Positions 5,329 to 64,000 of a stretch of 64,000 nucleotides of DNA are shown here, in pieces. The notes under the pieces were generated by a model. That model ran no database searches and was not told the origin of the DNA. It was given only the letters and a program-made list of their open reading frames with translations. Position numbers and translations under genes: made by a program. Location: NCBI RefSeq assembly GCF_963675165.1, contig NC_087381.1, forward strand, positions 5,147,378 through 5,211,377, given 5' to 3'. Each line of letters opens with the position of its first letter. Position 1 is the first letter of the stretch. This stretch comes from Halichondria panicea. Lineage: Eukaryota; Porifera; Demospongiae; Suberitida; Halichondriidae.

Positions 5329-5472
5329 ATGATGTTTAAGGTAGTTAAACAAGGTTAATCGAGGTACTCCGCTTGCCCCGCCTACTGCATTATGTACTGC
5401 CCAGCATCTACGCGCATGCGTAATTATCTCTACACCACCTCGTGCTCGATTATAGCTACCTGAGTTTAAAGC
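5329..5472. repeat. 144-bp repeat, exact second copy at 10043-10186
   Basis: ATGATGTTTAAGGTAGTTAA through CTGAGTTTAAAGC is found in both places with a constant offset of 4714 and no difference that I can see. It contains a TACGCGCATGCGTA near-palindrome. It is non-coding and the duplication must be recent. Confidence 0.85.
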
Positions 5473-9731: not shown

Positions 9732-10042
9732 GGCTATGACTGTTGGCTAGGCCACCTCTTTACCCCCAAGTACTTAATTAGGGGAGCATCGTAATTATTA
9801 GAAACGCTTCATCATTATCTAATTAGCGAGGTTGCACCCCTCTAATTAATTAGAGGGGCTTCCTATCCATATTAACGGCCTTCAGTCATGGTCCGGCTCA
9901 CCCTCCAAGGAGCGTTGCGGTAATGGGTAGCTGTACTCATCGCTTGCAGCAGTACCTAGAATGACGTATATCTTCGTAGTGGTAATGGTATCTAATTGGG
10001 TGCATGGCTTGCATATTTATTACTTGACGTACAGTAGATTAA
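9732..10042. repeat. 311-bp repeat, copy 1
   Basis: It is identical by eye, without indels (offset 518), to 10250-10560. It includes a CTCTAATTAATTAGAG palindrome. Function unknown. Confidence 0.9.
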
Positions 10043-10249
10043 ATGATGTTTAAGGTAGTTAAACAAGGTTAATCGAGGTACTCCGCTTGCCCCGCCTACT
10101 GCATTATGTACTGCCCAGCATCTACGCGCATGCGTAATTATCTCTACACCACCTCGTGCTCGATTATAGCTACCTGAGTTTAAAGCCCCACACCCAACCC
10201 TCCCTTGGTTTCTATACATTTCTCTGTCATTACGACATGACCGAGCCGT

Positions 10250-10560
10250 GGCTATGACTGTTGGCTAGGCCACCTCTTTACCCCCAAGTACTTAATTAGG
10301 GGAGCATCGTAATTATTAGAAACGCTTCATCATTATCTAATTAGCGAGGTTGCACCCCTCTAATTAATTAGAGGGGCTTCCTATCCATATTAACGGCCTT
10401 CAGTCATGGTCCGGCTCACCCTCCAAGGAGCGTTGCGGTAATGGGTAGCTGTACTCATCGCTTGCAGCAGTACCTAGAATGACGTATATCTTCGTAGTGG
10501 TAATGGTATCTAATTGGGTGCATGGCTTGCATATTTATTACTTGACGTACAGTAGATTAA
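10250..10560. repeat. 311-bp repeat, copy 2
   Basis: Exact partner of 9732-10042. The 207 bases between the copies contain the 144-bp repeat shared with 5329-5472. Confidence 0.9.
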
Positions 10561-44891: not shown

Positions 44892-46699
44892 ATGGAAGAC
44901 ACTCCAATTTTCCCCGACCCTCCTGTTGTAACTGTGGAGAGAACTCTGGCTATTATCAAACCTGATGCAGTGCATAGAGCAGATGAGGTTATGGAGGACA
45001 TCAAAAGTTTGGAATTTTCCATTCTAAATGTGAGTTGTAGAGCTCAAAAATAAATTAATTTCTGAAATATTAAAATGCACCTTATAACTTTATTTTTTCA
45101 TATTCACATTCATACAAATACGATTAGTCTTGCAGACGTCTGAGACGATGTACATACCCTGTACGTACGTACATGTAGCGAACAGGCCGGATTTGTGGAA
45201 CACTGAAATTTAGATAAATTATGCTCACCTGTAGTTAAAAACTGTACGTTAAATTCATTGTACTGCCCAGAATAGTCAGTACATGTACCTTACATGTGCA
45301 TATTCAGGTAACTTACAGTCTAGTAGAGAACGGACACCTTGGGGAAATTTTTGGTTGGCCTTTCTTCATGGGTGGTGGCAGTTTAAGTGCTTCCACTGTA
45401 ATTATACAATCTCTGAAACCTGTAAAGATGCAGTAGAGTGTATTTATTGCATGCCCTTTTGCCATCACCAAATCTTTATCTCTCATCACAGCAACGCAGG
45501 TTGAGGCTGACTCCAGAACAGGCCTCCGACTTCTATGCTGAGCACTATGGCAAAATGTTCTTCCCAAGTCTCATCGCTTACATGCAAAGGTATGATGGGT
45601 TAATCTCACAAGATATATTTAGTAGCTCTGAGGAGCATTCAGTATCTCGATGGTGTGTACATGTAGATCAAAAATGTGTGATGGCTCAAAATTCTGTAGT
45701 ATTTCCATGAAGTGTTTGAGTTGAATGCATGTACCTTTTTGGTAAACTCTTAGAGTACTAAGTTACACGCACCGGATGGGCCTTATAATTATTTGCCAAC
45801 AATTTCATTGGTATAAAACCTTGTATTCCTTGCAGTGCTGACATCATAGCACTGGTTCTGGCCAAGCGTGATGCTATTCAAGAGTGGAGGGATCTGCTGG
45901 GACCCACGAATGCGGTCAGAGCCAAGCAAGAAGCTCCCGACTCACTCAGGGCAAAGTATGGGCATGATCAAACAAGAAATGGGCTGCACGGCAGTGATAG
46001 CTACCATACGGCCGAGAGGGAGATCAGATTCATGTTCTCAGAATGTAAATAAGTGAAGGGCTACTCATGTACATGTACATGCATTAATTAGTTAGTTTCC
46101 ATCATATTATGAAATTATTGTTTCTGAGGTTCAAACATTATTTTAGTGTACGTATACAGTAATGATATATAATTATAGGTACCGACGTTTCTAGAATTTA
46201 AACTAATACATGAATACATAATTATTATCTCTGTCTTTTCTTTGTCTGCAGCGATCACAGAGCCCATCTACCACGGCCAAGATGCAACTGACTATCTCCA
46301 GAGCAAAGTGAACCCTGTCCTCACCAAGGCTCTCACACATCTGTCCAAACAAAAACCAGAAGACCCACTGGTACGCACAATCATTAAAATGATGTGATGG
46401 AAATAATAATGCATCAGTTGAATGTACACGTGACGTACGACTATTTTTCATGTGTGAATCTATACTGCCCATCCCCTGCTCCATTTTGAGGACAATTATT
46501 TGTATGCAGTTGCTAGTTACCCTAACCAACTATTCACCTACATAAGCGTATAATCATGTAAAGTACAACTTAAAGGCTCAAAATTGTATTTTGCTTATCT
46601 GCATCATTCACGCCACTTATTCCCTTGCAGACCTGGCTGGCTCAATGGTTGCTGGACAACAATCCTAACAAACCCAAAGTGACAGAAGTGGACACATGA
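44892..46699 (+). CDS. NME5: NME5-type nucleoside diphosphate kinase, 210 aa
   Basis: Exons 44892-45029, 45492-45589, 45836-46044, 46252-46370 and 46631-46699 join in frame (633 nt). The start MEDTPIFPDP precedes VERTLAIIKPDAVHRADEV, then LRLTPEQASDFYAEHYGKMF, LLGPTNAVRAKQEAPDSLRA and the active-site block NGLHGSDSYHTAEREIRFMF. The catalytic His is present (NxxHGSD). The C-terminal segment WLAQWLLDNNPNKPK matches the conserved DPY-30-like tail of NME5. Length agrees with human NME5 (212 aa). NME5 proteins belong to radial-spoke and ciliary complexes, so a ciliary or flagellar role is expected. A TTG 39 nt upstream is in frame, but ATG 44892 fits the family start. Confidence 0.9.
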
Positions 46700-47088
46700 A
46701 CTCATTCATAATTATAGTTACAGAAACTGTGTAGCACATTACATTTTTATGTTCATGTTTATGCAATTGGTATGACCACAGTGGTACATGTAGTGCCTGC
46801 AGCGGGAATTTAAGTTATTTTAGGTGAAAATGAGGGTGATCGTAAAAATGTATTACTACCAGTATTTTTGATCAAAGATAGAAAATTTAATGTGCAAACA
46901 GTTAGACCTTAGCCAACGCATAATTATGTTAGATTCCTTATTAAACCGACAACGATTGGTCTTTTCCATCGCTAAAGCGATACGTATAATTATTGTCCAC
47001 TATAGCTCTTCATAAACCACCAAATACGTTTATACCCACCACCTTAATTAAGGAAACAATAATATTTTATGTATATTATTATTTTAAT

Positions 47089-50000
47089 ATGCCTAGACAA
47101 TTAAGTCATGCGTATAGTATAGGCAAATCAGATACGCCCCTTTTTGGTACTAGAGGTACGTGTACGAACAAGTTTGTAGCTAGATCTACGAAAATGAGGC
47201 ACCGTACAACGAACAAGAAAACCAAGAAGCTAAGGAAGAAGTCTCTGGAATTGCAGGCCTTTGTTAAGCATTCCAGTGAGCTTCATGAAGTTCTCAATGA
47301 TGGTGTGTTAACAAGATTGGTTTGGGATCTCTTCCAAGCTGAAATATTCTCTCAAGCCACAGTTAGTAGTATAACACACGTCATGCTTAGTGAGAGTGAT
47401 AAGGCTACAAAGCTCGTTGGTGCTATAATACAGTCTATTAAGTCTGATAACTCAAATTTACTGACCATCCTCGATTGCTGCGACAAGTATCTTGAGTTGA
47501 AGCCGGTCGTTATGCGAATGAGAGAAGAATACGACCATCTCAAAGATGTTTCGCCAGGATTTAAGAATGGTACGTAAGCGTAGCTAAGAGTATATTAATT
47601 AATGCAACGTAGTTAGTAAGTAGTGATCAATCAGGTAGTAAAACTGTATATCGCAACATTTTCAAAGGGCTTAATTTTCGCTTTTTTCGTGGGTTAGCAA
47701 TCCTACATGAAAATTGCTTTTTATCTGCTATAACGTGGAGGGAGTGTTTCCGGTTCGAGGCATTTCGTTGAATAAATTGTGTGGGTTGACTGCTTACCGG
47801 AAACATTCCCAGGCCATGTCATCAAATCTTTACACGTTATAGCAGATCATTTCATGTATACGGTTGCTAATTCCCTCAAAAACAGCGAAAAGTACTACCG
47901 TATATCTTTTAATTTATCGGACAGCAAAAAATAATTATTTGGGAAATTTTCCGGGTATAATTGGAACAGATTTTTATAGAGCATGCGAAGTGTCCGGAAT
48001 AATTAGAACAAGCAAGCAGCTGCATGCGAGCTAGCTAAGTTTAATAGAACAGGGTACGACTGAATAGTTGCACTAGCTATCTAAAACTAGCTACTCAAAG
48101 CTATCTAACTGCAGCACTCTAAGTATAATTACTTGCCATCAATGAATGGTAACTCAATTTTTTATATTGTCCGGATATTTAGAACAAATGTAATATTAAA
48201 GTACTGGAGTGTCCGTTGTATTAGAACAACGAAAATTGCCCAAAAGAGTGTCCGGGGTAATTAGAAGTGTCCGATAAATTATAAGATATACGGTAACACG
48301 TACTATGATGACAGTAGACTCTCGCTATTCCGGCTCTCTGAAGGTACGGCCACCTCGATATACCGGCCGTTTGGTTTGGCACGAATATATGTTTACTGCA
48401 CAAACTCACCCTGCATGAAGTACGGCCACTCGCTATTCCGTATACTGGGCAGCGCTGGCTCCCAAACTAATAAAAAGAAAACCAAGAAAACCAACCCCCT
48501 AGAGGACCGGGTGGGTGGGAAAAATGATTGAAGCAGCTACTCCGCTCTCAGTACAATATTAAACAGGTGGTCGCACGAGGCTGGTCATCCTAATACGCAT
48601 GCGCGGCCACAGCCGCACCCTGGGTAACCCCCTTTGGCGTTAACTACGTTTAATTACATTTTATATACATTTTATTACGGCCGGATTTGACGTTTTGGGT
48701 GTGGTTTGGCAGATAAAATTGGATTACACTTAAATAGAGAGTAAAATGATTCATTAATTATCATCCTTCATTATCCTCGAGACAAGAACCGCTCATTAGA
48801 TTCGAGGTAAGGTCGTTTTTAAGCAGCGGCTATTTCCTGAAATACAGCCACCGCGCTATTCCGGCCAAACTGCACTAGCTGTCCCAAGGGTGACCGGATT
48901 AACGAGAGTCTACTGTGTAGCTATATATACACATGTGATGAGCAGTTGGTATAATTATGTGCCGGGAACTGATTGTAGATTTCACTGTGATGATGCATGA
49001 GCATGTCTCATTAAAATAATTATGATGACAATAATTATATTTATACGCTTTGGTCTGAATTCTCAGGTTCACGTAATCGTCAATTTATTATTTATGCTTA
49101 CATTCACAAATTTAGAAGTTATTGCAAGCCCAGCTGGACAAAACAGATCTTGTCCTGGACTAACAAAGAAGTGCTGTGTGAGAGGCACAATCGCCACCAT
49201 AATATCAATTTTTGTATTGATGATAATTGGATTCAGATGTGTGAATTATGTTGAAGGACGTTTTGAGATAACTTTTTTGGGTATTGGTCAAGACCAACAA
49301 ATTTTAGAACATGAGTTTGAAAGAAGTGATGACGAAATGCCAAAGCAAATTAGTTATGGCAGGCCAAATGCACCTCTAATTAACATCAGTTTACCATTGC
49401 CGTCTCGCCCCATGCCGTTTGTTGGTAGAAAAGAATTAATAAACGAAATAATACAACGTCTTCTTGGTACCCACACATCAATAGTAGGATTGTTTGGGCC
49501 TCCTGCGTTCGGAAAAAGTTCATTGGCTATTCATGTTGGTCATGAAGTCATGAACAAAAAAGGCGTTAGTGTAAGCTACGTTGATCTAAGCGAATTCAGA
49601 CTATCCTTTGAGCAACAACCTCACGCCAGAAGCCATGTCAGAGGAGTTCAGATACATGGTGACAATTTTGGGAAACGTTTACTAGGCAGGTCTGTCAACG
49701 GTGACCACCTATTGAACTGGGCAGCTACAATTGAAAACATTTCTATTTTGATTTTTGATAACTGTGATCCTGTTCTCAATAAATGGCATGATGAATTCCA
49801 AGAGTTTATACTAGATTTGAGAAAGTCATCTAGAAATAATTTGAAGGTCATAATTACAAGCCAGCTAAAAATTTCTTTTGTGGACCACTTTACTGATATT
49901 GAAGTGTTAGAGTTAAGTGACAAGGATTCAAAATCCTTAATCAGTGTTCTTCGACCAAATTTGAATCATCACTTACAAACTGAAATAGTTGAACTCGTAG

Positions 50001-51463
50001 GAAACTGCCCTTTGGCAATTAAGGTGGCAGTTATGCTGCTCAAAACAATTAGCCCGACAATGTTAATCCAAGATCTAAAGGCAAAAAATGTTGATGTGAT
50101 ATCTTCTTCACAATTTCCAAGGCGTGAGAGATTCAATGTTGTAATGGACACTGCTTGTCAATATCTCAGCAACAACTCCATAAGAGCAGCATATCTCTTT
50201 TCGTTATTTCCTGGTTCATTTGATGAAGATGTTCTTTCATTTTCGTTTTTCAGAGAATTTCGTGATGAGGTCAACAATCTTTTTGAGCGGTCTCTCTTTG
50301 AAAGGTACGCTCACATTTTTGGAGAAAGATACAAGTTGCATAAGCTAATAAAAACATATTTTAGGGAGAAGATTTTGATAGATTCAAAAAATGTATTGAA
50401 ATCTGACTTCAAAACAACATTCGTAGAGTATTATACAAAGAAACTTTATAATTATCTCACTTCTATAAAGTCGATTAAAGAACCAGCTCAAAAAGACCAA
50501 CTTATCACTAGCGAACAGCATAACATACGACAGCTAGCTAGAATTTTGTTAAGTACAGAAGATCACTACTTTTCTTCAGAAGAAATAATAGTTCTTCTAT
50601 TTTATTCTCAACAAGGAGGCTTAGAGAGCAACCATTCAAGTATTATTCTAGATGTCACGCTTACATTTTTAGAAGAAAACAACACATTGCTGAACAAAGC
50701 GTGCTCTCAGACTTACACGAGTGTATGCAAAGTATTGATATCCGACCTATTGCTCTCCATTACCGAAACTGGCTATACATACCTCCCTTGTACAATTTGT
50801 GACACAGTTAGTGGCCCAGACAAGCTCATGAACTTTATCACTGATGACTTGCTACAGTTAATTGACAATTCTTATGTTTTCTGCTCACAAAACAATTTTG
50901 CACATAACATTGTCAAGATTTTGAAGTATTTGCTTTTTTCATTGGAGTGTTGGTTTTCATTGCAGTATTCTTCAGTTGTCTTTCGCGTTCAAATGGGAAA
51001 GACTGGCTCATTTCAATCTTTATTGCACTTTCTATATTTTTTTTTAGTGATTCAAACAATTGAATCTTACGTTATGCTTTGTTTCACAATTTTTCTACTT
51101 GTGATTTTGTATGCTTTGAGAGGTTATATCTGGAACAAGTGTGTCACTACTCATCTTTTCTTTTTGTGCATTCTTTATCTTAATTTTTATGTTTTGGGTG
51201 TTTTAGCTAACGCTCTTGGATATTTTTCACTAGAAGGAAATGGATCAATGAGATACCAACAGTGGTGTCTATTATGCATACATTTAACATGTAAAAACTC
51301 GTTTTGGATCGCAAATTTTCTTAACAATCTTATATGCTCAGTAATTTTTCCTGGTATTCCTCTATACTTTATAGCTAGATATTTTGTTGGCAGCATCATT
51401 AGCTTATTTATGAGTGATTTTCATCAATTTGTATACACAAGTAAAAGACGTTTCCACAATTAG
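47089..51463 (+). CDS. Membrane-associated STAND (NB-ARC-type) ATPase with N-terminal death-fold-like domain
   Basis: Exons 47089-47569 and 49116-51463 join at phase 1 (GTACGT donor, TTTAG acceptor) to give 942 aa. Residues about 40-155 are basic at first (RHRTTNKKTKKLRKK), then helical (LHEVLNDGVLTRLVWDLFQ, DKATKLVGAIIQSIKSD), the size and look of a death-fold/CARD domain (inference). A hydrophobic segment lies at about 184-200. An NB-ARC ATPase follows: FVGRKEL, Walker A GPPAFGKSS (288-296), Walker B ILIFDNCD (371-378), VIITSQ sensor, GNCPLAIKV (GLPL-like) and YKLHKLIKTYF at the MHD position. A helical region precedes about four C-terminal transmembrane segments (about 795-925). AATAAA is at 51499. 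STAND ATPases are signalling switches in immunity and cell death; the membrane segments are unusual. Confidence 0.7.
47670..47891. mobile_element. MITE-like inverted repeat (intron of the STAND gene)
   Basis: TTTTCGCT...GTTAGCAA...TGCTATAACGTG pairs with CACGTTATAGCA...TTGCTAA...AGCGAAAA. Confidence 0.55.
47896..48295. mobile_element. 400-bp MITE with TACCGTATATCTTTTAATTT termini
   Basis: The right end (AATTATAAGATATACGGTA) is the inverse of the left. GTGTCCG motifs repeat inside. It lies in the intron of the STAND gene. Confidence 0.7.
48311..48916. mobile_element. 606-bp MITE with ACAGTAGACTCTCG termini
   Basis: Perfect 14-bp TIRs (ACAGTAGACTCTCG / CGAGAGTCTACTGT), with sub-terminal CCGG-rich repeats. 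It ends about 200 bp before the second exon of the STAND gene. Confidence 0.75.
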
Positions 51464-51498
51464 CTTTTTGTATTCACACAATCCCCATTATGTTTAAT

Positions 51499-51504
51499 AA
51501 TAAA
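51499..51504 (+). terminator. Polyadenylation signal of the STAND gene
   Basis: AATAAA 36 nt after the stop codon at 51463. Confidence 0.55.
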
Positions 51505-51509
51505 ATTAA

Positions 51510-53340
51510 TATGCAATTCAGTTATACCTAAAATTTTATAGTTATGTTTGTTCTTATCGGATTGTCTTATATGCAACCAATCGGCTGGAGTATGTATAAT
51601 TATGTGTGGATACAGAGGTTACATGCAGAGGAGAGAAGAACCTAATTAGTTTTTGGCATCACTGTATTTTGTGCAGTCATAATTATATATAATTATAGCT
51701 TTTTTTATTTAGTTTTTTGTGTTATTATTTTGTTTGTCTTGTGTTTGCTATTGTAAGGATTCCACATTAGACCATCTATGATAAGCTTCTCAGACTCAAT
51801 ATCAATAATGGGTAAAGATGATTAACTAGACAATGAAAAAGTAGTAGAAAAATCAGAAGTAGGCGTAGCTGGGAGAGGCTCGATTCACATGTAGATCTAC
51901 GTGTACACAACTCTGGCTCTTTGGCTACGGCCTGTTGCAGGACAGGTATATAGGTCTACATCACTGTGGATATTCCCAAGAGAGACTCTGAGTAACCACG
52001 TACTGACTGATACAAGTCTAGGATTGATCCCACACTTGTACACTGTACTGCTGGTATGTTGTGATAAAGCCATGACAAATGGCTGTGTCGCGTCCGTTTG
52101 TTAATTAATAGACAACCAAACGATACATCGTATCTATGGATAAAGCGTCCGCTATTGTAGTGTAAATGCGCACACACTTATTATTTTGTGCCATTGCCCT
52201 TTTTATAGCATTCTGATGATCCTATTGATTTCTTTTGTTTGTGTAACTTCTAGGGCTGTATTTTATGTCGTACACAAAGGAAATTCCCGTGCTTTGATTC
52301 CGGTAGAGTGTTCACACTTTGTATTTGTACAGTTCACAATCTTTGATGCTGCAACTTGAGTTAACAGTTCAGCATGTGTCTAATGTTGAGTCAGTATATC
52401 ATGTGCTGTGTGTACATGTTCTAACAAAGCTTAGCTCATGTGTTTTGCTTTCCAACCATCAAAGATAATTATTGTTTAATGTCACATTTTGTTTATTGTG
52501 CAAGCCTCCGCTTGTTGTCATGTGCTTGTAAAGGCATTTGCAACTCTTGTAAAAAGCTTGTAACACTCGTGTACTAGCTGGTTCAGCTTATAGTATTTGT
52601 TGTTTTGAAAAGACACATGACAGAATAACGACACCTCAGCAGCATGTACAGTTGTGTTTATAAATAGTTGTGCTTGTTTAGATTTATTATTAGTATCAAA
52701 AAACAACCTGAATTCAGTAAAGTCTTCTTCATCCATTATACGCGCCAATCAAGAAGTTATTTGTGAGTTATAATTATCTTATTTATCTTAGTACGTACCT
52801 AGTTTAAGTACGAACTGTATCTGAGGTTATTGTGAGAGCTTGATTGTGTTTGTATCTGCTATCATTATGTCATTGTCTTTTTTCCGAGACTTAATTTACA
52901 AGGTACTGATGTGGATATTTATGTTGTGGTTGTGAATAGCGTATAATATCTCAATAGTGATCATACCACCATTAAGAAATCTTAAACCAAGCTTTGGCTA
53001 CAGTACATTAGGGTCCGAACCGTGTTTGCAGATATCCACACCTTATATTATCAAGCTGGTTGATATCGATGCATAATAATAATATAATGATGACACGTCT
53101 AATAAGCTTGCACTATAGCTACAGTGATACTGTTACCAGTTGACATTCTTCAAGTTTGTGTTATTGTTTTCCTGGCTTGTTTACAATACAAGAATCTGTT
53201 GCTTTTATTGCTGCACTTTAAGTTAGTGCAATGCTCGATCATGTGTACAGTCCCTAATTAATAGCAGACACATTTTAGGCAACAAAGTTAATTAACAAAA
53301 AGCCCGTTTAATAATTAAAGCTCCACTGTGATACTTACAG
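51510..53340. other. Intergenic stretch without recognisable genes
   Basis: AT-rich sequence with short open frames only, none with splice-consistent or conserved content that I can recognise. It must include the promoter of the TBC gene. Confidence 0.5.
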
Positions 53341-54277: not shown

Positions 54278-57200
54278 CACACACACACGCACACACCTAC
54301 ACCTACACACACACACACACACCACGCACGCACACGCACACACGCACACGCACACACACACAGTGACCAGAGAACCATCGACCTGGAGAACAGAGCTAAC
54401 TACCTGGCACTTCGACAACGCTGGCAAATCCTCGATAATACAATGCAATCCCCCGAAACAACCATCCATGACCAACCCTCGTATCTAGAACTGAGCGACG
54501 ATGAAATAGTTAATCAATCCCGATCAAATTCCCCCTCCTCCAATGAAAAATCCCCTGTCACAAATGATGAATCTCCGACCAATGATGATACAGGTTCGAT
54601 AGAGGCCAGTTTGGACTGCAGTGGAGAAATGTGTAGCCGATGTCACAAGATGATAGCCTCGGGCTCTTTAAGTAACTCTGTAACTACAAACAGTGAAAGC
54701 GGATTTTCAGAAGCTTCAAACACGACATTCTCCTCATGTACTTGTACAAAAAGTGACCAATCAAAAAGTTCTGAAAATGATGGAGTTACATGTAGGCGCA
54801 CAACTGTTGATCTGTCTGCATCCTCTGAAAATGAGTCTGGGTGCGAGACTAATATTCAACCTACAACCTCAAGTACTAATGGTTCAACTTTATCCCCGAG
54901 CGATGGCAGCGGGTGTCAGAGTGTTGATCAGAGCTCGTGCAGTTGCAGTCGGTCAGTTGGGGAGACTAGCAACGAGTGTGGCATCTGTCAGGAGAGGGAG
55001 GAAGGTGTGAAGAAGTGCGTGTGTGAGTTCAAGAGCAGCTGTGAGAACTTGAGTCAAGACGATGAGGCTTTGTTGAAGATCCTCGATTTCCCTTCTCGGG
55101 TGAGTCAGTGTTTTTAGTAAATGTGCCGAGTACTGTGAGCTAGTACAGTGCATGTGTTTTGCTGCTCTATTAATTAGGCTAGAATGTAAGGAATGTTGCC
55201 CAATATATATATAAGGGCGTATGGAATCCTATATAGACTAATAGAGCATAAGTTCATATTAATTAGCATTAACAGTTTCTCCTTTTAGCATTAAGTTTAT
55301 ACTTGTGCACGGTTACACATGTGCAACGTATTCAAACATTGACACTCACCACACTCACTTACCACCACCCCACACACGAACCACACATACACACACCACA
55401 CAACACAGGTATACGCAGCTCGCCGGCCTGTCCAGTTAGAGACCAGCTATCCCAAGGCCAGGAGAATAGTTCTCAGAGATGTGGCCAGAACTGACAGGAA
55501 CTATCACTACTTCACTCACAAGCGCAACCTGAGGAAGGTCCACAGAATACTCCTCACCTACGCCATGTTTCACCCGGGTGAGTTAGAGCTATGGTATATA
55601 CTGTACGCGGTTTAGAAGGAGTGATATGTATAAGAGTTCTCCTAATTGCTGTAATTGCTGTAATTGACTTTATTTATTGTGTATGTACAGTTCTTCCGTA
55701 CATATTACAGTCATGTACATGTTTTTGTTTCCTGGTAACGTAGTAAGTTTTCAGTGACCATGGCAATTGCAATTATAAGTAACATACTTTCACTAAATAC
55801 ATGTAATACATTACATCGTCACAAATGACACTCCAAATGGAAGTTCGACACATTTTTAGTGATTTAATTGGCCACCCCCCCTCCCCCCTCCAGAGGTTGG
55901 CTATGCCCAGGGCATGAACGACATCCTGGCCCGGTTCCTAGTGGTGACAGACTCGGAGGTTGACTCGTACTGGCTGTTTGCCAGCTACATGTCCAAGAAG
56001 AGAGAGGACTTCCTCGAGCACACCATGATGAGGAAAGTTGGTGAGTGCAGTGGCTCTTGTATCACTAGTGCATGTAGTGTGCTGTAATAGAGTTGTGATT
56101 TGCATTAACGATTCCGCATAATCGATTACCAATTAAGTGTGGCCCGTACACTGTACAGGTTAGGTGTGTGTGAGTATATAATTGTAATAGGTTGCACTGT
56201 CTGAATGTTTTCCTGTTGGTCTGCAGCATTTGTGAAGAACCTGGTGAGGGAGGTGGATAGAGAGTTGTACAGCTTCTTTGACAAGTCTGATTGTCGTGAC
56301 TACCTCTTTTGTCACAGGTGAGTGGGGTGTGTCCATGCATGGGAAATTAGTTGCTTACTCCTATAGTTGAAGGTTGTTCGTTTGAATATACTACACTGTT
56401 ACCTCTATACAGTATATAGACTACATCAATTTAACCGAATGCGTAGGTGGTGGTGTGATATCCACATTACAAACGCACTCTGTAGTGTTTTGCACTATAA
56501 CAATGGTTGATCTTTACCTAACACAAATCCCTGTAATGTTTTGCACCAGAGGAGGAATGCCAGTGTCAAAAGGTCACTAATTAAAACACCATATGGCCCT
56601 ATGTTTTACATGTAAAACTGAGTTTACCCTCGTGCCCCTGAGTTTATACACCACCAATAGCTTGATCCTCTTTATAATCACAACAGAAATCGGTTGAGCT
56701 ATCGCGCCCCAGAGGAATCAGCTTGAGAGGAGATCCAGGATTTAATTGCAACCTTTGTCCTTTTACTGCATTCTTCAAAACCACAAGATATGGAAATTAG
56801 CCTTCCATGGCTAGGGTATAAATTTTGATGTACTGGCTTGCTGCACTGGATAGACCTAGGTATAGCAAGCTTTCCAAGCAGGCAAATAAAGAACAGAAGC
56901 GCTAAGCTGCTATATGCAGCAAAGGTCAAGAACCCAGAACAAGAATGTTTAATCCTTCATTAAACGTGACTCTATTGACCCTGGCGTTCCTCCTCTGGTT
57001 TTGCACTGTTGATCTTTACCATACAAATCCCTGTAGTGTTTTACACTATAAATAGTTGATCTTTACCTAACACAAATCCCTGTAGTGTTTTGCACTATAA
57101 CAATGGTTGATCTTTACCTAACACAAATCCTGTAGTGTTTTGCACTATAACAATGGTTGATCTTTACCTAACACAAATCCCTGTAGTGTTTTGCACTATA

Positions 57201-59370
57201 ACAATGGTTGATCTTTACCTAACACAAATCCCTGTAGTGTTTTGCACTATATCAATGGTTGATCTTTACCTAACACAAATCCCTGTAGTGTTTTGCACTA
57301 TAACAATGGTTGATCTTTACCTAACACAAATCCCTGTAGTGTTTTGCACTGTAACAATGGTTGATCTTTACCTAACACAAATCCCTGTAGTGTTTTGCAC
57401 TATAACAATGGTTGATCTTTACCTAACACAAATCCCTGTAGTGTTTTGCACTATAACAATGGTTGATCTTTACCTAACACAAATCCCTGTAGTGTTTTGC
57501 ACTATAACAATGGTTGATCTTTACCTAACACAAATCCCTGTAGTGTTTTGCACTATAACAATGGTTGATCTTTACCATACACAAATCCCTGTAGTGTTTA
57601 TTTGCACTGACTGTAACAAAGGCTTCGTTAAAAAATAATATATCTTTTCCCCATGCATAGATGGCTGTTATTAGACTTCAAGAGGGAATTTCCCTTCGAG
57701 GAGGCCCTGAGGATATTTGAGGTGCTCAACAGTCAGTACCTGGAGCTCAACTCTGACCGGGCTCTCGTGGTAACAGACAAGGTCATCGCCAAGGAGTTTG
57801 AAATGGATGGTGAGTGCTCGTTTATGCATGATAATAATTAACATGTACAATCATTTGTATAGGTCTATTAAGTTATAGAAGAGTACTATACGTACAATCT
57901 CCCTACCCTATGCAGTCCTCTATATGCATGCATGTAGTCCTGTGCCTGCATGCATGGGTACATTTATTGGCTATAGATAATGCTGCACCCCATAGTCATG
58001 TATTGATTCCATAGATAAAGGAATTCGAATAAAGAACTTCTACCCCTGTATTATACACTTGTATTTTCTTTATTCAGCTGGTGAGACCCGCTCTGAGAGG
58101 TCAGAGGTCAACCTGGAGTTCACGTTTGATGTTTTTGTGTGTGTGGCAATTCTGACAATGAACAGTAATGACATTTGCAAGGCTTCTGATGCTGCTGGAA
58201 TCTATGGCTGTCTCAACGGGTGAGTGAAACATGTGACTTTGTATCAATACTGGTGACAATGCCTCTATTGTTTATCAATTGTGCCAATTAAGGCTGCTTA
58301 TAGTATGCTTATACTCTAAAACTTAGATATGTACAATGTATATTGTCCATGTACTCCATCTGCCATATGGTAATTGATGTAGTGCCAGTGTGACAATGCC
58401 TCTACTGTCAATCAATTGTGCCAATTAAGGCTGGTATAGTTTATGTAGACTCTAAAACTTACAATGTATATTGTCCATGCACTCCATTTGCCATATGGTA
58501 ATTGATGTAGTGCCAGTGTGACAATGCCTCTATTGTCAATCAATTGTGCCAATTAAGGCTGGTATAGTTTACGTAGACTCTAAAACTTACAATGTATATT
58601 GTCCATGCACTCCATTTGTCATATGGTAATTGATGTAGCCAGTGTGACAATGCCTCTATTGTCAATCAATTGTGCCAATTAAGGCTGGTATAGTTTACGT
58701 AGACTCTAAAACTTACAATGTATATTGTCCATGCACTCCATTTTGCCATATGGTAATTGATGTAGCCAGTGTGACAATGCCTCTATAATAATAGTAATAC
58801 AATATGCATGACCATTACAGATACACGTGTATGTGAATACTGAATAAAGTTTGATATACATTTCTGCTGCAAATCAATCTTGGATCTTTGCTAACCGCTT
58901 CTCTATAGCTCATGCGAAAAGGCTGTAAAATGCTGTATAGGGACGAGCTATATAGCTCGGTTTTTACGGTTGTGCAAAATAGCAATTAATTCAGGGTGTG
59001 GCTGTCCGTTCTGGAGGTTATTTTCCATTGCTAAAGCAGATTAGGAGTATAGAAAACTGCTCTTTATACGCAGTATAGAGAGGTGGTCGCTCCTGAGAGG
59101 TTGCTTTACATTGAAGTCATTGTATAGTTTCAATCCGGACCTGAGCTCTTGACCGTTTTATAGCGTGTGGTTGCTCTTCGGAAGTGGTTGTTATGGAGGT
59201 TCCACTGTTCTTTTGTTGGCGGTTCTATGCAGTTAACTAAGTATGTCATTCCCATGCACAGACTCTCCATGAAGATGAATCTGACTGAAGTACTGACACA
59301 GGCAGAGGAACTGTTTTACAAGTATTGTAGACAGAACATCACTAGGGGATTTGCTGAGATAGACTTGTAG
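53351..59370 (+). CDS. TBC-domain RabGAP (TBC1D25-like), 588 aa, nine exons
   Basis: Exons 53351-53498, 53745-53820, 54364-55099, 55409-55577, 55894-56040, 56227-56317, 57661-57809, 58078-58219 and 59262-59370 join in frame (1767 nt). The start MSYSNGAS leads to SEFSDWFDSDGRLVNEAAM and a TBC N-terminal block (PCLWKFLFEIYPL). Exon 3 adds a Ser/Asn/Cys-rich insert of about 200 residues. Catalytic motifs are intact: VLRDVARTDR (Arg finger, R347) and YAQGMNDIL (Gln finger, Q382), followed by YWLFASYM, RWLLLDFKREFPFEEALRIF and a C-terminal helix LTEVLTQAEELFYKY. The KREF-x-F-x-(D/E)ALR segment is closest, from memory, to TBC1D25. The protein should speed GTP hydrolysis on a Rab GTPase. Partial copies follow downstream. 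Confidence 0.85.
53903..54061. mobile_element. Possible MITE (TACAGTGAAA ... TTCCACTACAGTA) in TBC intron 2
   Basis: Imperfect terminal inverted repeats of the TACAGTG type. It abuts the CA microsatellite. Confidence 0.4.
54102..54363. repeat. (CA)n microsatellite forming the 3' end of TBC intron 2
   Basis: About 260 nt of CA, CACG and CACC repeats run without interruption into the acceptor CAG at 54361-54363, directly before exon 3. Confidence 0.95.
56481..57618. repeat. 51-bp minisatellite, about a dozen units (TBC intron 6)
   Basis: Unit CTGTAGTGTTTTGCACTATA + ACAATGGTTGATCTTTACCT + AACACAAATCC. One unit lies before and the rest after an inserted element (56546-56998). The 17-codon unit creates an open frame of chance origin. 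A single decayed unit occurs at 60058-60115 in the downstream copy of the gene. Confidence 0.95.
56546..56998. mobile_element. Non-autonomous hAT-like element inside the minisatellite
   Basis: Ends CCAGAGGAGGAATGCCAG and CTGGCGTTCCTCCTCTGG form 18-bp TIRs with one mismatch. TTTTGCA lies on both sides as a 7-8-bp target duplication. Termini of the CAGAGG type with about 8-bp duplications are typical of hAT elements. No transposase is encoded. Confidence 0.65.
58252..58790. repeat. About 126-bp tandem repeat, four units plus a partial (TBC intron 8)
   Basis: Units begin near 58252, 58393, 58519, 58647 and 58770 with TGTGACAATGCCTCTATTGT, and include CAATTGTGCCAATTAAGGCT and GCCATATGGTAATTGATGTA. 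One unit and a partial occur at 60840-60990. Confidence 0.9.
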
Positions 59371-61671: not shown

Positions 61672-62494
61672 TGGCACACGCTAACACTCGTCGCCATGGT
61701 AACCCAGTGAGTGACTCGGAGTTCAGTGATTGGTTCGACTCTGATGGGATACTAGTAAAGGAGGCGGCCATGAGAGAGGCTCTCTTCCGCTGTGAGTGGA
61801 TCATTGTGGTTATGGTTATGTACATGCATGACATTGTATATGTATAGTGGCACCCTTTCATAACGGATACATTAATTTGGGGAGTATCGAGTACGGTTTT
61901 GTTCGATGTGTTATACAGAGGTAGCCTTTATTAATTATTTTTGTTGAGTTGTATAATTATACACAAACTGTTTGTTTGGGAGTTTACCTTTCTTCGGGGG
62001 TGGCCATTAAGGGGGATACCAGTTTTGAAACTAGATCTAATGGTTCAATTTTATCCCCAAATGAAAAACGGGTGTCAGGGTGTTGATCAGAGCTCGTGCA
62101 GTTGCAGTCGGTCTGTTGGGGAGACTAGCAACGAGTGTGGCATCTGTCAGGAGAGGGAGGAAGGTGTGAAGAAGTGCGTGTGTGAGTTCAAGAGCAGCTA
62201 TGAGAACTTGAGTCAAGACGATGAGGCTTTGTTGAAGATCCTCGATTTCCCTTCGCGGGTGAGTCAGTGACGAGTACTGTGAATACAGTGTATTTATTTT
62301 GTTTTGCCACTCCATTAATAATTAGGGTAATAATTATTCTCCATAGATGGCTGTTATTGGATTTCAAGAGGGAATTCCCCCTTCGAAGAGGCCCTGAGGA
62401 TATTTGAGGTGCTTAACAGTCAGTACCTGGACCTCAACTCTGACCGGGCTCTCGTGGTAACAGACAAGGTCATCGCCAAAGAGTTTGAAATGGA
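61672..62494 (+). pseudogene. Partial TBC gene copy: exon 1, end of exon 3, exon 7
   Basis: 61672-61788 copies exon 1 (SEFSDWFDSDGILVKEAAM) with a different beginning (MAHANTRRHGNP). Part of intron 1 follows, and then about 62075-62262 copies the end of exon 3 (SSCSCSRSVGETSNECGICQ to FPSR). An exon 7 copy at 62347-62494 has an extra C (GGAATTCCCCCTTCGA) that shifts the frame. Exons 2, 4, 5 and 6 are absent. Confidence 0.8.
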
Positions 62495-63285: not shown

Positions 63286-63544
63286 TGGTAATTCATGTAG
63301 TACCAATATGACAGAGCCTCTATAATAATAGTAAATTATATGCATGACCTTTACAGATACACGTGTATATGAATACTGTAAACGTGGATTCTCCGAAAAA
63401 ATTATACTGTACATTCCTAAATAATCATCACACACAGAAAATTCACCGAGTGAGTATACATACAAGTTGCACGTGTATACTATTAAGAAGCCAATATAAA
63501 TTCTGAATTATGCCTGAATTAAAGAGTTGCAGATTGTTCGTGCG

Positions 63545-64000
63545 CGCAGTTGCAGTTGGTCTGTTGGAGAGACTAGCAACGAGTGTGGCATATGTCAAGA
63601 GAGGGAGGAAAGTGTGAAGAAGTGCGTGTGTGAGTTCAAGAGCAGCTGTGAGAACTTGAGTCAAGATGATGAGGCTTTGTTGAAGATTCTCGATTTCCCT
63701 TCGCGGGTGAGTCAGTGTATTAAGAGTAAATGTGCCGAGTACTGTGAATACATGCATATTTTGTTTTGCTGCTTCTTTAATTAAGCTAAGAATGTAAGGA
63801 ATGTTGCCCATTATATATGTAAGGGCGTATGGAATCCTATATAGAGCTTAGACTAATAGAGCATAAAGTTCATATTTAGCAGTTACAGTTTCTCGCATTA
63901 AATGTGTACGAGTAAATACTTGTGCACGGTTACATACATGTGCAATGTATTCGAACATTGACTCACCTCCACACACACACCACATTCACTTACCACCCCC
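63545..64000 (+). pseudogene. TBC end-of-exon-3 copy with following intron, continuing past the window
   Basis: 63545-63714 encodes SVGETSNECGICQERE through LLKILDFPSR, ending at the same GTGAGTCAG donor. The following intron sequence (GTAAGGGCGTATGGAATCCT, GTGCACGGTTACA) also matches 55190-55380. An exon 4 copy should follow outside the window. Confidence 0.8.

What the first reader, a model, noticed from the sequence alone, without database searches (positions are those of the whole stretch)
47089..51463. STAND ATPase with a death-fold-like N-terminus and membrane segments on both sides of the NB-ARC core
Walker A (GPPAFGKSS), Walker B (FDNCD), the GNCPLA loop and an MHD-like YKLHKLIKTYF define an NB-ARC-type STAND switch. 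Known NLR or APAF1-type proteins are soluble and end in LRR, WD40 or TPR sensors. Here the C-terminus is a bundle of about four hydrophobic helices, with another hydrophobic segment before the ATPase. A STAND receptor held in a membrane by its sensor end would be a new architecture for innate signalling or cell death.
Basis: partly seen in the sequence, partly recalled or inferred. Interest (0 to 1): 0.72.

Follow-up and report, generated by a model that had tools for sequence, protein, structure and literature searches.

The report
Membrane-embedded Apaf-1-like CARD ATPase
This animal gene appears to join a cell-death docking domain (CARD), an Apaf-1-type molecular switch and several predicted membrane-crossing helices in one protein, and it belongs to a small family in the same genome, which suggests a death or immune switch that works inside a membrane instead of freely in the cell.

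The parts
47194..47569 (+).
47089..47193 (+). In-frame extension upstream of M36; probably 5' untranslated, possibly translated
   Evidence: open in the window, closed by a stop in paralogue L018
47570..49115 (+). Intron, phase 1, GTACGT...TTTAG; holds two inverted-repeat elements
   Evidence: about 50% identity to paralogue against 70-100% in exons
49116..51463 (+). Exon 2: TM1, NB-ARC-type STAND core, helical arm, C-terminal hydrophobic block, stop
49187..49243 (+). Hydrophobic helix TM1, between CARD and ATPase (TIATIISIFVLMIIGFRCV)
   Evidence: KD 2.31; GES 1.69; hydrophobicity kept in L018 although the first 90 residues of exon 2 have dN 0.37; equivalent in 10 of 10 family loci, ending 42-87 residues before the P-loop
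49391..50434 (+). NB-ARC-type STAND core used for alignment A4
   Evidence: profile matches Apaf-1 1z6t E 2.6e-9, AfsR, PH0952, NRC4, NRC2
49496..49519 (+). Walker A, GPPAFGKS
49754..49768 (+). Walker B, FDNCD (DNCD invariant in 8 of 8)
50000..50017 (+). GNCPLA loop (GxP motif)
50333..50359 (+). MHD-like motif (KLHKLIKTY; H, I, Y invariant)
50993..51442 (+). C-terminal hydrophobic block, about 4 (perhaps 5) predicted membrane helices
   Evidence: five GES peaks, 1.15, 1.76, 1.64, 1.45 and a borderline 1.00; best 130 aa mean KD 1.18, 5.4% charged, against -0.12 and 21.7% in the rest
51499..51504 (+). AATAAA polyadenylation signal 36 bases after the stop
   Evidence: read directly in the sequence

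Best explanation
A membrane-embedded, Apaf-1-class STAND signalling ATPase. Shown by sequence and fold prediction: a CARD-like domain, one hydrophobic helix, an NB-ARC-type nucleotide switch aligned with Apaf-1 through its winged-helix part, a further stretch of about 200 residues, and a C-terminal bundle of about four hydrophobic helices, in one two-exon gene of a ten-locus family. Inferred: the hydrophobic parts hold the protein in a membrane; the C-terminal part, which differs most among relatives, receives or relays a signal there; ADP-to-ATP exchange in the NB-ARC core makes the protein oligomerise; this clusters the CARDs, which recruit a death-fold partner (caspase or adaptor) and start cell death or inflammation.
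For: Core homology to Apaf-1 along the whole aligned core. CARD fold from a model made without any alignment. The six-sequence exon-1 profile matches 17 of the 27 CARDs found in the same genome at 92%; 60 of 60 column shuffles gave 0.6% or less. CARD-like exon upstream in 9 of 10 family loci; profile links between them are given; in L024 it passes Pfam's CARD cut-off. TM1 in 10 of 10 and C-terminal hydrophobic block in 9 of 10. The blocks of L021 and L025 are 48% identical over 217 aa, so the block is a conserved protein part there. 12 of 12 sampled NACHT exons of the same genome have no such helix before the P-loop (12 of 102 listed). The genome has 33 caspase-type and 27 CARD matches.
Against: A single spanning TM1 would separate CARD and ATPase by the membrane; flanking charge favours CARD in the cytosol (N side +24/-9, C side +20/-26 over 11 loci), which would leave the ATPase outside it. 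Window exon 1 plus its near copy alone do not match CARDs (0.5%, no better than shuffles) and match the nearest trio of relatives only at 26% (score 26.3 against at most 15.0 in 15 shuffles); a PDB search with the six-sequence profile finds no CARD. The window's core is below Pfam's NB-ARC cut-off (11.9 of 23.5 bits). The C-terminal model is useless (pLDDT 42.7). None of the 4 caspase frames scanned showed a CARD in the same exon. No expression data.
Confidence: 0.58

Rival explanations
1. Split topology: CARD in the cytosol, TM1 spans once, and the NB-ARC core lies in the ER lumen or outside the cell, so that the protein carries a signal across the membrane.
For: Net positive charge on the N side of TM1 and net negative charge on the C side, summed over 11 loci, ten of the family plus L027; TM1 stretches of 21-41 residues without charge, except one Arg inside in the window and in L027.
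Against: STAND switches are known in ATP-rich cytosol (established knowledge); glycosylation sequons are not enriched in the part after TM1 (8 loci); flank charges are even or reversed in L020, L023 and L024, and some N flanks may include intron sequence because the open frame was used.
Confidence: 0.17
2. Executioner: the hydrophobic helices are the effector, and oligomerisation through NB-ARC opens a pore or channel, as plant resistosomes do; the CARD regulates or recruits.
For: Multi-helix C-terminal block in 9 of 10 loci; the core profile also matches the plant NLRs NRC4 and NRC2 (their pore function is recalled).
Against: In plants the pore part is at the N-terminus (recalled); here that place holds a CARD. 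The block varies from 2 to 7 KD segments among the nine loci, odd for a pore.
Confidence: 0.13
3. Not a membrane protein: TM1 and the C-terminal block are hydrophobic but buried.
For: Segment count is within whole-protein shuffles; KD and, borderline, GES also peak inside the soluble core.
Against: Two further scales keep TM1 and a C-terminal cluster, GES with four C-terminal peaks above those in the core; TM1 stays hydrophobic while its sequence changes; found in 10 of 10 and 9 of 10 loci.
Confidence: 0.07
4. Two separate genes: a small CARD-only gene and a TM-NB-ARC gene that begins in the open frame upstream of 49116.
For: The window's second open frame runs up to 49001 with possible starts.
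Against: In L018 the frame is closed about 10 bases before the same acceptor; phase-1 donor candidates in 7 of 8 and acceptor candidates in 8 of 8; CARD-like exon upstream on the same strand in 9 of 10 loci.
Confidence: 0.05

Closest known systems
Apaf-1 / CED-4 (CARD-NB-ARC apoptosome ATPases)
   Same: CARD-like domain followed by NB-ARC plus winged helix; the core profile's best solved match is Apaf-1; exon-1 model's best matches include caspase-9, RIG-I, CED-3 and Apaf-1 CARDs
   Different: Apaf-1 is soluble and ends in WD40 (recalled); here a hydrophobic helix sits between CARD and NB-ARC, and the C-terminus is a hydrophobic helix block without WD40 matches
Transmembrane-domain NLRs of sea anemones (PMC5094078)
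   Same: STAND receptors with predicted membrane helices in an early animal; proposed to be membrane-bound (passages)
   Different: NACHT plus LRR with 3-5 helices at the N-terminus; here NB-ARC type, no LRR, one helix before and about four after the core
Membrane-domain NLRs of the sponges Dysidea avara and Amphimedon (PMC12909245)
   Same: Death-fold plus STAND receptors with transmembrane domains in sponges
   Different: Described as NACHT-LRR NLRs; layout of the helices is not given in the text I saw. In this genome L027 (CARD-like frame upstream, TM, NACHT, LRR) fits that kind, the window gene does not
Expanded Apaf-1-like CARD/DLD-NB-ARC genes of placozoans (PMC6321704)
   Same: Several divergent CARD-NB-ARC paralogues in a simple animal (passages)
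   Different: No membrane helices mentioned for them in the passages I saw
KAP-type P-loop ATPases (Kidins220; recalled, not tested)
   Same: STAND-related ATPases with membrane helices
   Different: Helices lie inside the ATPase; no CARD

Membership tests
NB-ARC class of STAND ATPases | P-loop, Walker B, GxP loop, MHD-like motif | tested here: met
   GPPAFGKS, FDNCD, GNCPLA, KLHKLI; invariant columns in 8 of 8 aligned sequences
NB-ARC class of STAND ATPases | Homology along nucleotide-binding, helical and winged-helix parts | tested here: met
   Profile A4 to Apaf-1 1z6t positions 3-346 of 347, E 2.6e-9; the window alone finds no related chain, so this is by family profile
NB-ARC class of STAND ATPases | Pfam PF00931 curated cut-off by the window protein alone (a tool threshold, not a defining part) | tested here: not met
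   11.9 of 23.5 bits; 2 of the 9 relatives scanned reach it, L023 28.5 and L026 23.8 (the frames scanned for L020 and L024 lack the P-loop part)
CARD (death-fold superfamily) | Six-helix bundle of the death fold | tested here: met
CARD (death-fold superfamily) | Sequence-profile similarity to CARDs | tested here: inconclusive
   Six-sequence profile 92% against 17 CARDs with clean shuffles; L019+L020+L022 84.6%, L024 97.4%, L027 51.8%, L023 31.0%, L021+L025 5.9%, window pair 0.5%; PDB search without L023/L024 finds none, with them a CARD leads
Apaf-1 proper | C-terminal WD40 propellers | tested here: not met
   No WD40 match; C-terminus hydrophobic
Bona fide NLR (NACHT plus LRR) | NACHT domain and LRRs | tested here: not met
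   No NACHT or LRR match up to E 1 in the window protein
Integral membrane protein | Membrane-spanning helices | tested here: inconclusive
   Three hydropathy scales agree on TM1 and a C-terminal cluster but no dedicated topology predictor or experiment
Caspase-recruiting death machinery | Binding of a CARD partner and caspase activation | not testable with these tools
   Needs protein experiments

The most novel reading that the evidence does not exclude
A STAND receptor whose CARD and nucleotide switch lie on opposite faces of a membrane: the NB-ARC core sits in the lumen or outside, followed by the C-terminal bundle, and a single helix passes the oligomerisation signal to cytosolic CARDs, making it a true transmembrane apoptosome-like receptor, present as a small gene family.
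Probability: 0.17. Interest if true: 0.85.

Novelty: new variant of a known kind. Interest (0 to 1): 0.56.

Why it matters
Apaf-1-type switches are textbook soluble proteins. A family in which the same CARD plus NB-ARC unit is built into a membrane, beside a large ordinary NACHT repertoire in the same genome, would show that early animals also ran death or immune switches from membranes, and would give a simple system to ask how a STAND oligomer signals across or within a bilayer. It also makes the sidedness question directly testable.

Tried and rejected
CARD from sequence alone: Pfam and PDB searches with the window's exon 1 gave no CARD. A PDB search with profile A1 led with a CARD and listed several, but this came from including L023 and L024; without them no CARD appeared, so I do not count as evidence for the window's own domain. 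Pairwise profile tests show that the window pair is the weakest link: 26% to L019+L020+L022, 1.6% to L021+L025, 0.1-0.2% to L023 and L024. L024's CARD matches CARDs (97%) but none of the other exon-1 groups directly.

Counting hydrophobic segments as proof: rejected, because whole-protein shuffles reach the same counts.

Glycosylation sequons as a guide to sidedness: no signal.

C-terminal structure: single-sequence model failed (pLDDT 42.7); not searched against folds.

CARD-caspase partner: 7 regions fetched for 33 caspase-type matches, 4 frames scanned; only caspase domains passed cut-offs. Prodomains in other exons would be missed.

TM1 as a general feature of this genome's NLRs: not seen in the sampled NACHT exons (0 of 12 of 102 listed; best KD 1.58), but L027 (NACHT-LRR) has one. 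Exons further upstream were not seen.

Wider census: a second query (L021) found the same ten loci plus one broken fragment at C14:4672442. NCBIfam gave a sub-cut-off match of the core to bacterial TPR-STAND proteins (FxSxx_TPR, E 3.1e-7, 29.3 of 300 bits), in line with the STAND reading.

Large NACHT, CARD and caspase sets fit an animal; I did not identify the species.
Full report
WHAT IS THERE. Joining 47089-47569 to 49116-51463 gives an unbroken 942-aa protein. The window holds no other copy. In its own genome (131 Mb, 39 contigs) the second exon finds 11 matches; one pair of rows falls in one gene (L024), so these are ten loci: the window, an 86% copy 310 kb away (L018), and eight relatives at 26-39% identity over the matched parts (L019-L026). 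A second query, L021, finds the same loci and one broken fragment. The search scores only its best candidates, so ten is a lower bound.

THE GENE MODEL. Exon identity between window and L018 is about 70-100% per 150-base bin, intron identity about 50%. Exon 1 has dS 0.25 and dN 0.06, exon 2 dS 0.17 and dN 0.08, so both are kept as protein. The rate is uneven: the first 90 residues of exon 2 have dS 0.54 and dN 0.37, the last 330 have dS 0.04 and dN 0.02, and the two bins after the stop are 95-99% identical outside long gaps; recent gene conversion of the 3' part is my reading. A phase-1 donor candidate is found in 7 of 8 loci examined and at least one phase-1 acceptor candidate in 8 of 8 (there the acceptor column printed as 2 counts the bases that exon 2 gives to the split codon, i.e. 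phase 1). In L018 the frame closes about 10 bases before the acceptor, so exon 2 there is best read from an upstream exon. L018 also has a stop upstream of the Met that corresponds to M36, so translation most likely starts at 47194 (907 aa).

By sequence the CARD link is indirect. Window plus L018 match the other four exon-1 relatives of profile A3 (82.6%, score 36.2; 60 shuffles reach 17.5 at most), and the six together match 17 CARDs of this genome (92.3%, score 40.5; 60 shuffles reach 13.1 at most), but window plus L018 alone do not match CARDs (0.5%). Taken in groups with 15 shuffles each, the trio L019+L020+L022 matches CARDs at 84.6%, the pair L021+L025 at 89.6% and L023 at 57.9%, and here the last two figures are trio-to-group matches, not matches to CARDs: directly to CARDs, L021+L025 reach 5.9% and L023 31.0%. 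The window pair matches the trio at 26.3% (score 26.3, shuffles at most 15.0). L024 matches CARDs at 97.4% and passes Pfam's CARD cut-off (24.7 of 23.9 bits) but does not match the other groups directly. A CARD-like exon lies upstream on the same strand in 9 of 10 loci, L019's being 5.4 kb away; none was found for L026.

THE CORE. Alone, the window's core is under every Pfam cut-off and finds no related chain in the PDB. The profile of eight family cores finds Apaf-1 first, over the whole length (E 2.6e-9), and further down AfsR, PH0952, NRC4, NRC2 and Roq1. The window's place in that family is secure (26-34% identity for the longer matches, E down to 7.8e-39). It is therefore an NB-ARC-class STAND core by family profile; NACHT is not matched by the window.

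THE HYDROPHOBIC PARTS. TM1 (49187-49243) is present in 10 of 10 loci with Kyte-Doolittle 2.10-3.04, ending 42-87 residues before the P-loop. In L018 its letters differ widely (dN 0.37 in the first 90 residues of exon 2) but hydrophobicity is kept (2.31 and 2.42), which suggests selection for it. The C-terminal block has mean KD 0.79-1.56 over its best 130 residues in 9 of 10 loci (L026 has none; in L025 it is in a separate open frame) against -0.32 to 0.09 in the rest. Wimley-White keeps TM1 and a C-terminal cluster and has no peak in the window's core. GES keeps TM1 and five C-terminal peaks, the last borderline, but also has two borderline peaks (1.03, 1.04) in the core. Segment counts alone are not above shuffles. 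12 NACHT exons sampled out of 102 listed have no comparable helix before the P-loop, so this is not a general habit of the genome's STAND genes as far as sampled; L027, a NACHT-LRR gene with a near-cut-off CARD-like frame upstream (21.4 of 23.9 bits), does have one. L023 and L024 carry TPR-like stretches below Pfam's cut-offs between core and C-terminal block.

HOW IT MOST LIKELY WORKS. From the established biology of Apaf-1, CED-4 and NLRs: nucleotide exchange drives ring or wheel assembly and clusters the CARDs, which recruit caspases or adaptors. I infer the same here, with the assembly anchored in a membrane by TM1 and the C-terminal bundle. The genome has the means: 33 caspase-type and 27 CARD matches, some of which may be exons of one gene, though no CARD was seen in the same exon in 4 caspase frames scanned. 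The weak point is sidedness. If TM1 spans once, CARD and ATPase are on opposite sides. Flank charges, summed over 11 loci, favour CARD inside, sequons say nothing, and a re-entrant or peripheral TM1 would remove the problem. I keep this open as the most novel reading.

WHAT IS KNOWN. Sea anemones have NLRs with 3-5 N-terminal transmembrane domains, 8 of 35 examined (PMC5094078, passages). The Dysidea avara paper confirms transmembrane domains in sponge NLRs and credits earlier Amphimedon work (PMC12909245, passages and sections 19 and 24); I take that work to be Yuen et al. (recalled), whose DOI as I recall it is not held. Placozoans have twelve Apaf-1 homologues if death-like domains are counted as CARDs (PMC6321704, passages). 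A survey of death-like domains reports a very large set of TRADD-N proteins in Amphimedon, most architectures having N-terminal death-like domains (PMC8195603, passages). Six paper searches (combinations of NB-ARC, APAF1 or Apaf-1, CARD or DEATH, NACHT or NLR, transmembrane or membrane-bound, sponge, Amphimedon or Porifera) listed 15-20 papers each out of 21-71 found; none of the listed titles or abstract starts describes a CARD-TM-NB-ARC-multi-TM protein. I read only the passages and sections named.

VERDICT. A real, intact-looking, conserved gene of a small family. Architecture is well supported, with the CARD resting mostly on fold prediction; membrane insertion is likely but untested; function is inferred. 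It is a new variant of a known kind.

Noticed in passing
47896-48295 and 48311-48916: The intron holds two elements with terminal inverted repeats (28 and 23 nt, 96% and 91% complementary), like non-autonomous DNA transposons; the paralogue's intron is unalignable here.
   Followed up: partly
49116-51700 against L018: From about 50400 on, exon 2 and the bases after the stop are 95-100% identical to the paralogue 310 kb away while the 5' part of exon 2 is 70-86%, as if by recent gene conversion.
   Followed up: partly
L027 (C17:1264500-1274400): A NACHT-LRR gene in the same genome with a CARD-like frame upstream and a hydrophobic helix before the NACHT domain: probably a membrane NLR of the kind reported in sponges.
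   Followed up: partly
L023 and L024 (C6:4319500-4336400): Two neighbouring relatives add TPR-like stretches (below cut-off) before the hydrophobic C-terminus; L024 also has a weak DEATH match (E 0.046) before its CARD.
   Followed up: partly
C1:15512183-17380266 and elsewhere: The L022 CARD-like domain has 42 matches at E 0.01 or better in the genome, itself included; ten weak ones (E 5e-4 to 5e-3) form a repeated set on contig 1 with open frames of 383-385 aa: perhaps a CARD-like family outside the STAND genes.
   Followed up: no
54876-55358, 62037-62269 and 63543-63978: Three copies (86-95% identical) of a gene end; the first two read as a cysteine-rich stretch (SSCSCSRSVGETSNECGICQ).
   Followed up: no
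57008-57599: Tandem array of a 51-base unit, 11.7 copies at 97%, mostly within a 175-codon open frame (57111-57635).
   Followed up: no
9732-10042 and 10250-10560: Exact 311-base direct repeat; 144 of the bases between the copies (10043-10186) match 5329-5472 exactly.
   Followed up: no
45426-46700: Exons of the neighbouring upstream gene on the same strand; they look like an NME5-type nucleoside diphosphate kinase with a Dpy-30-like end (recalled, not searched).
   Followed up: no
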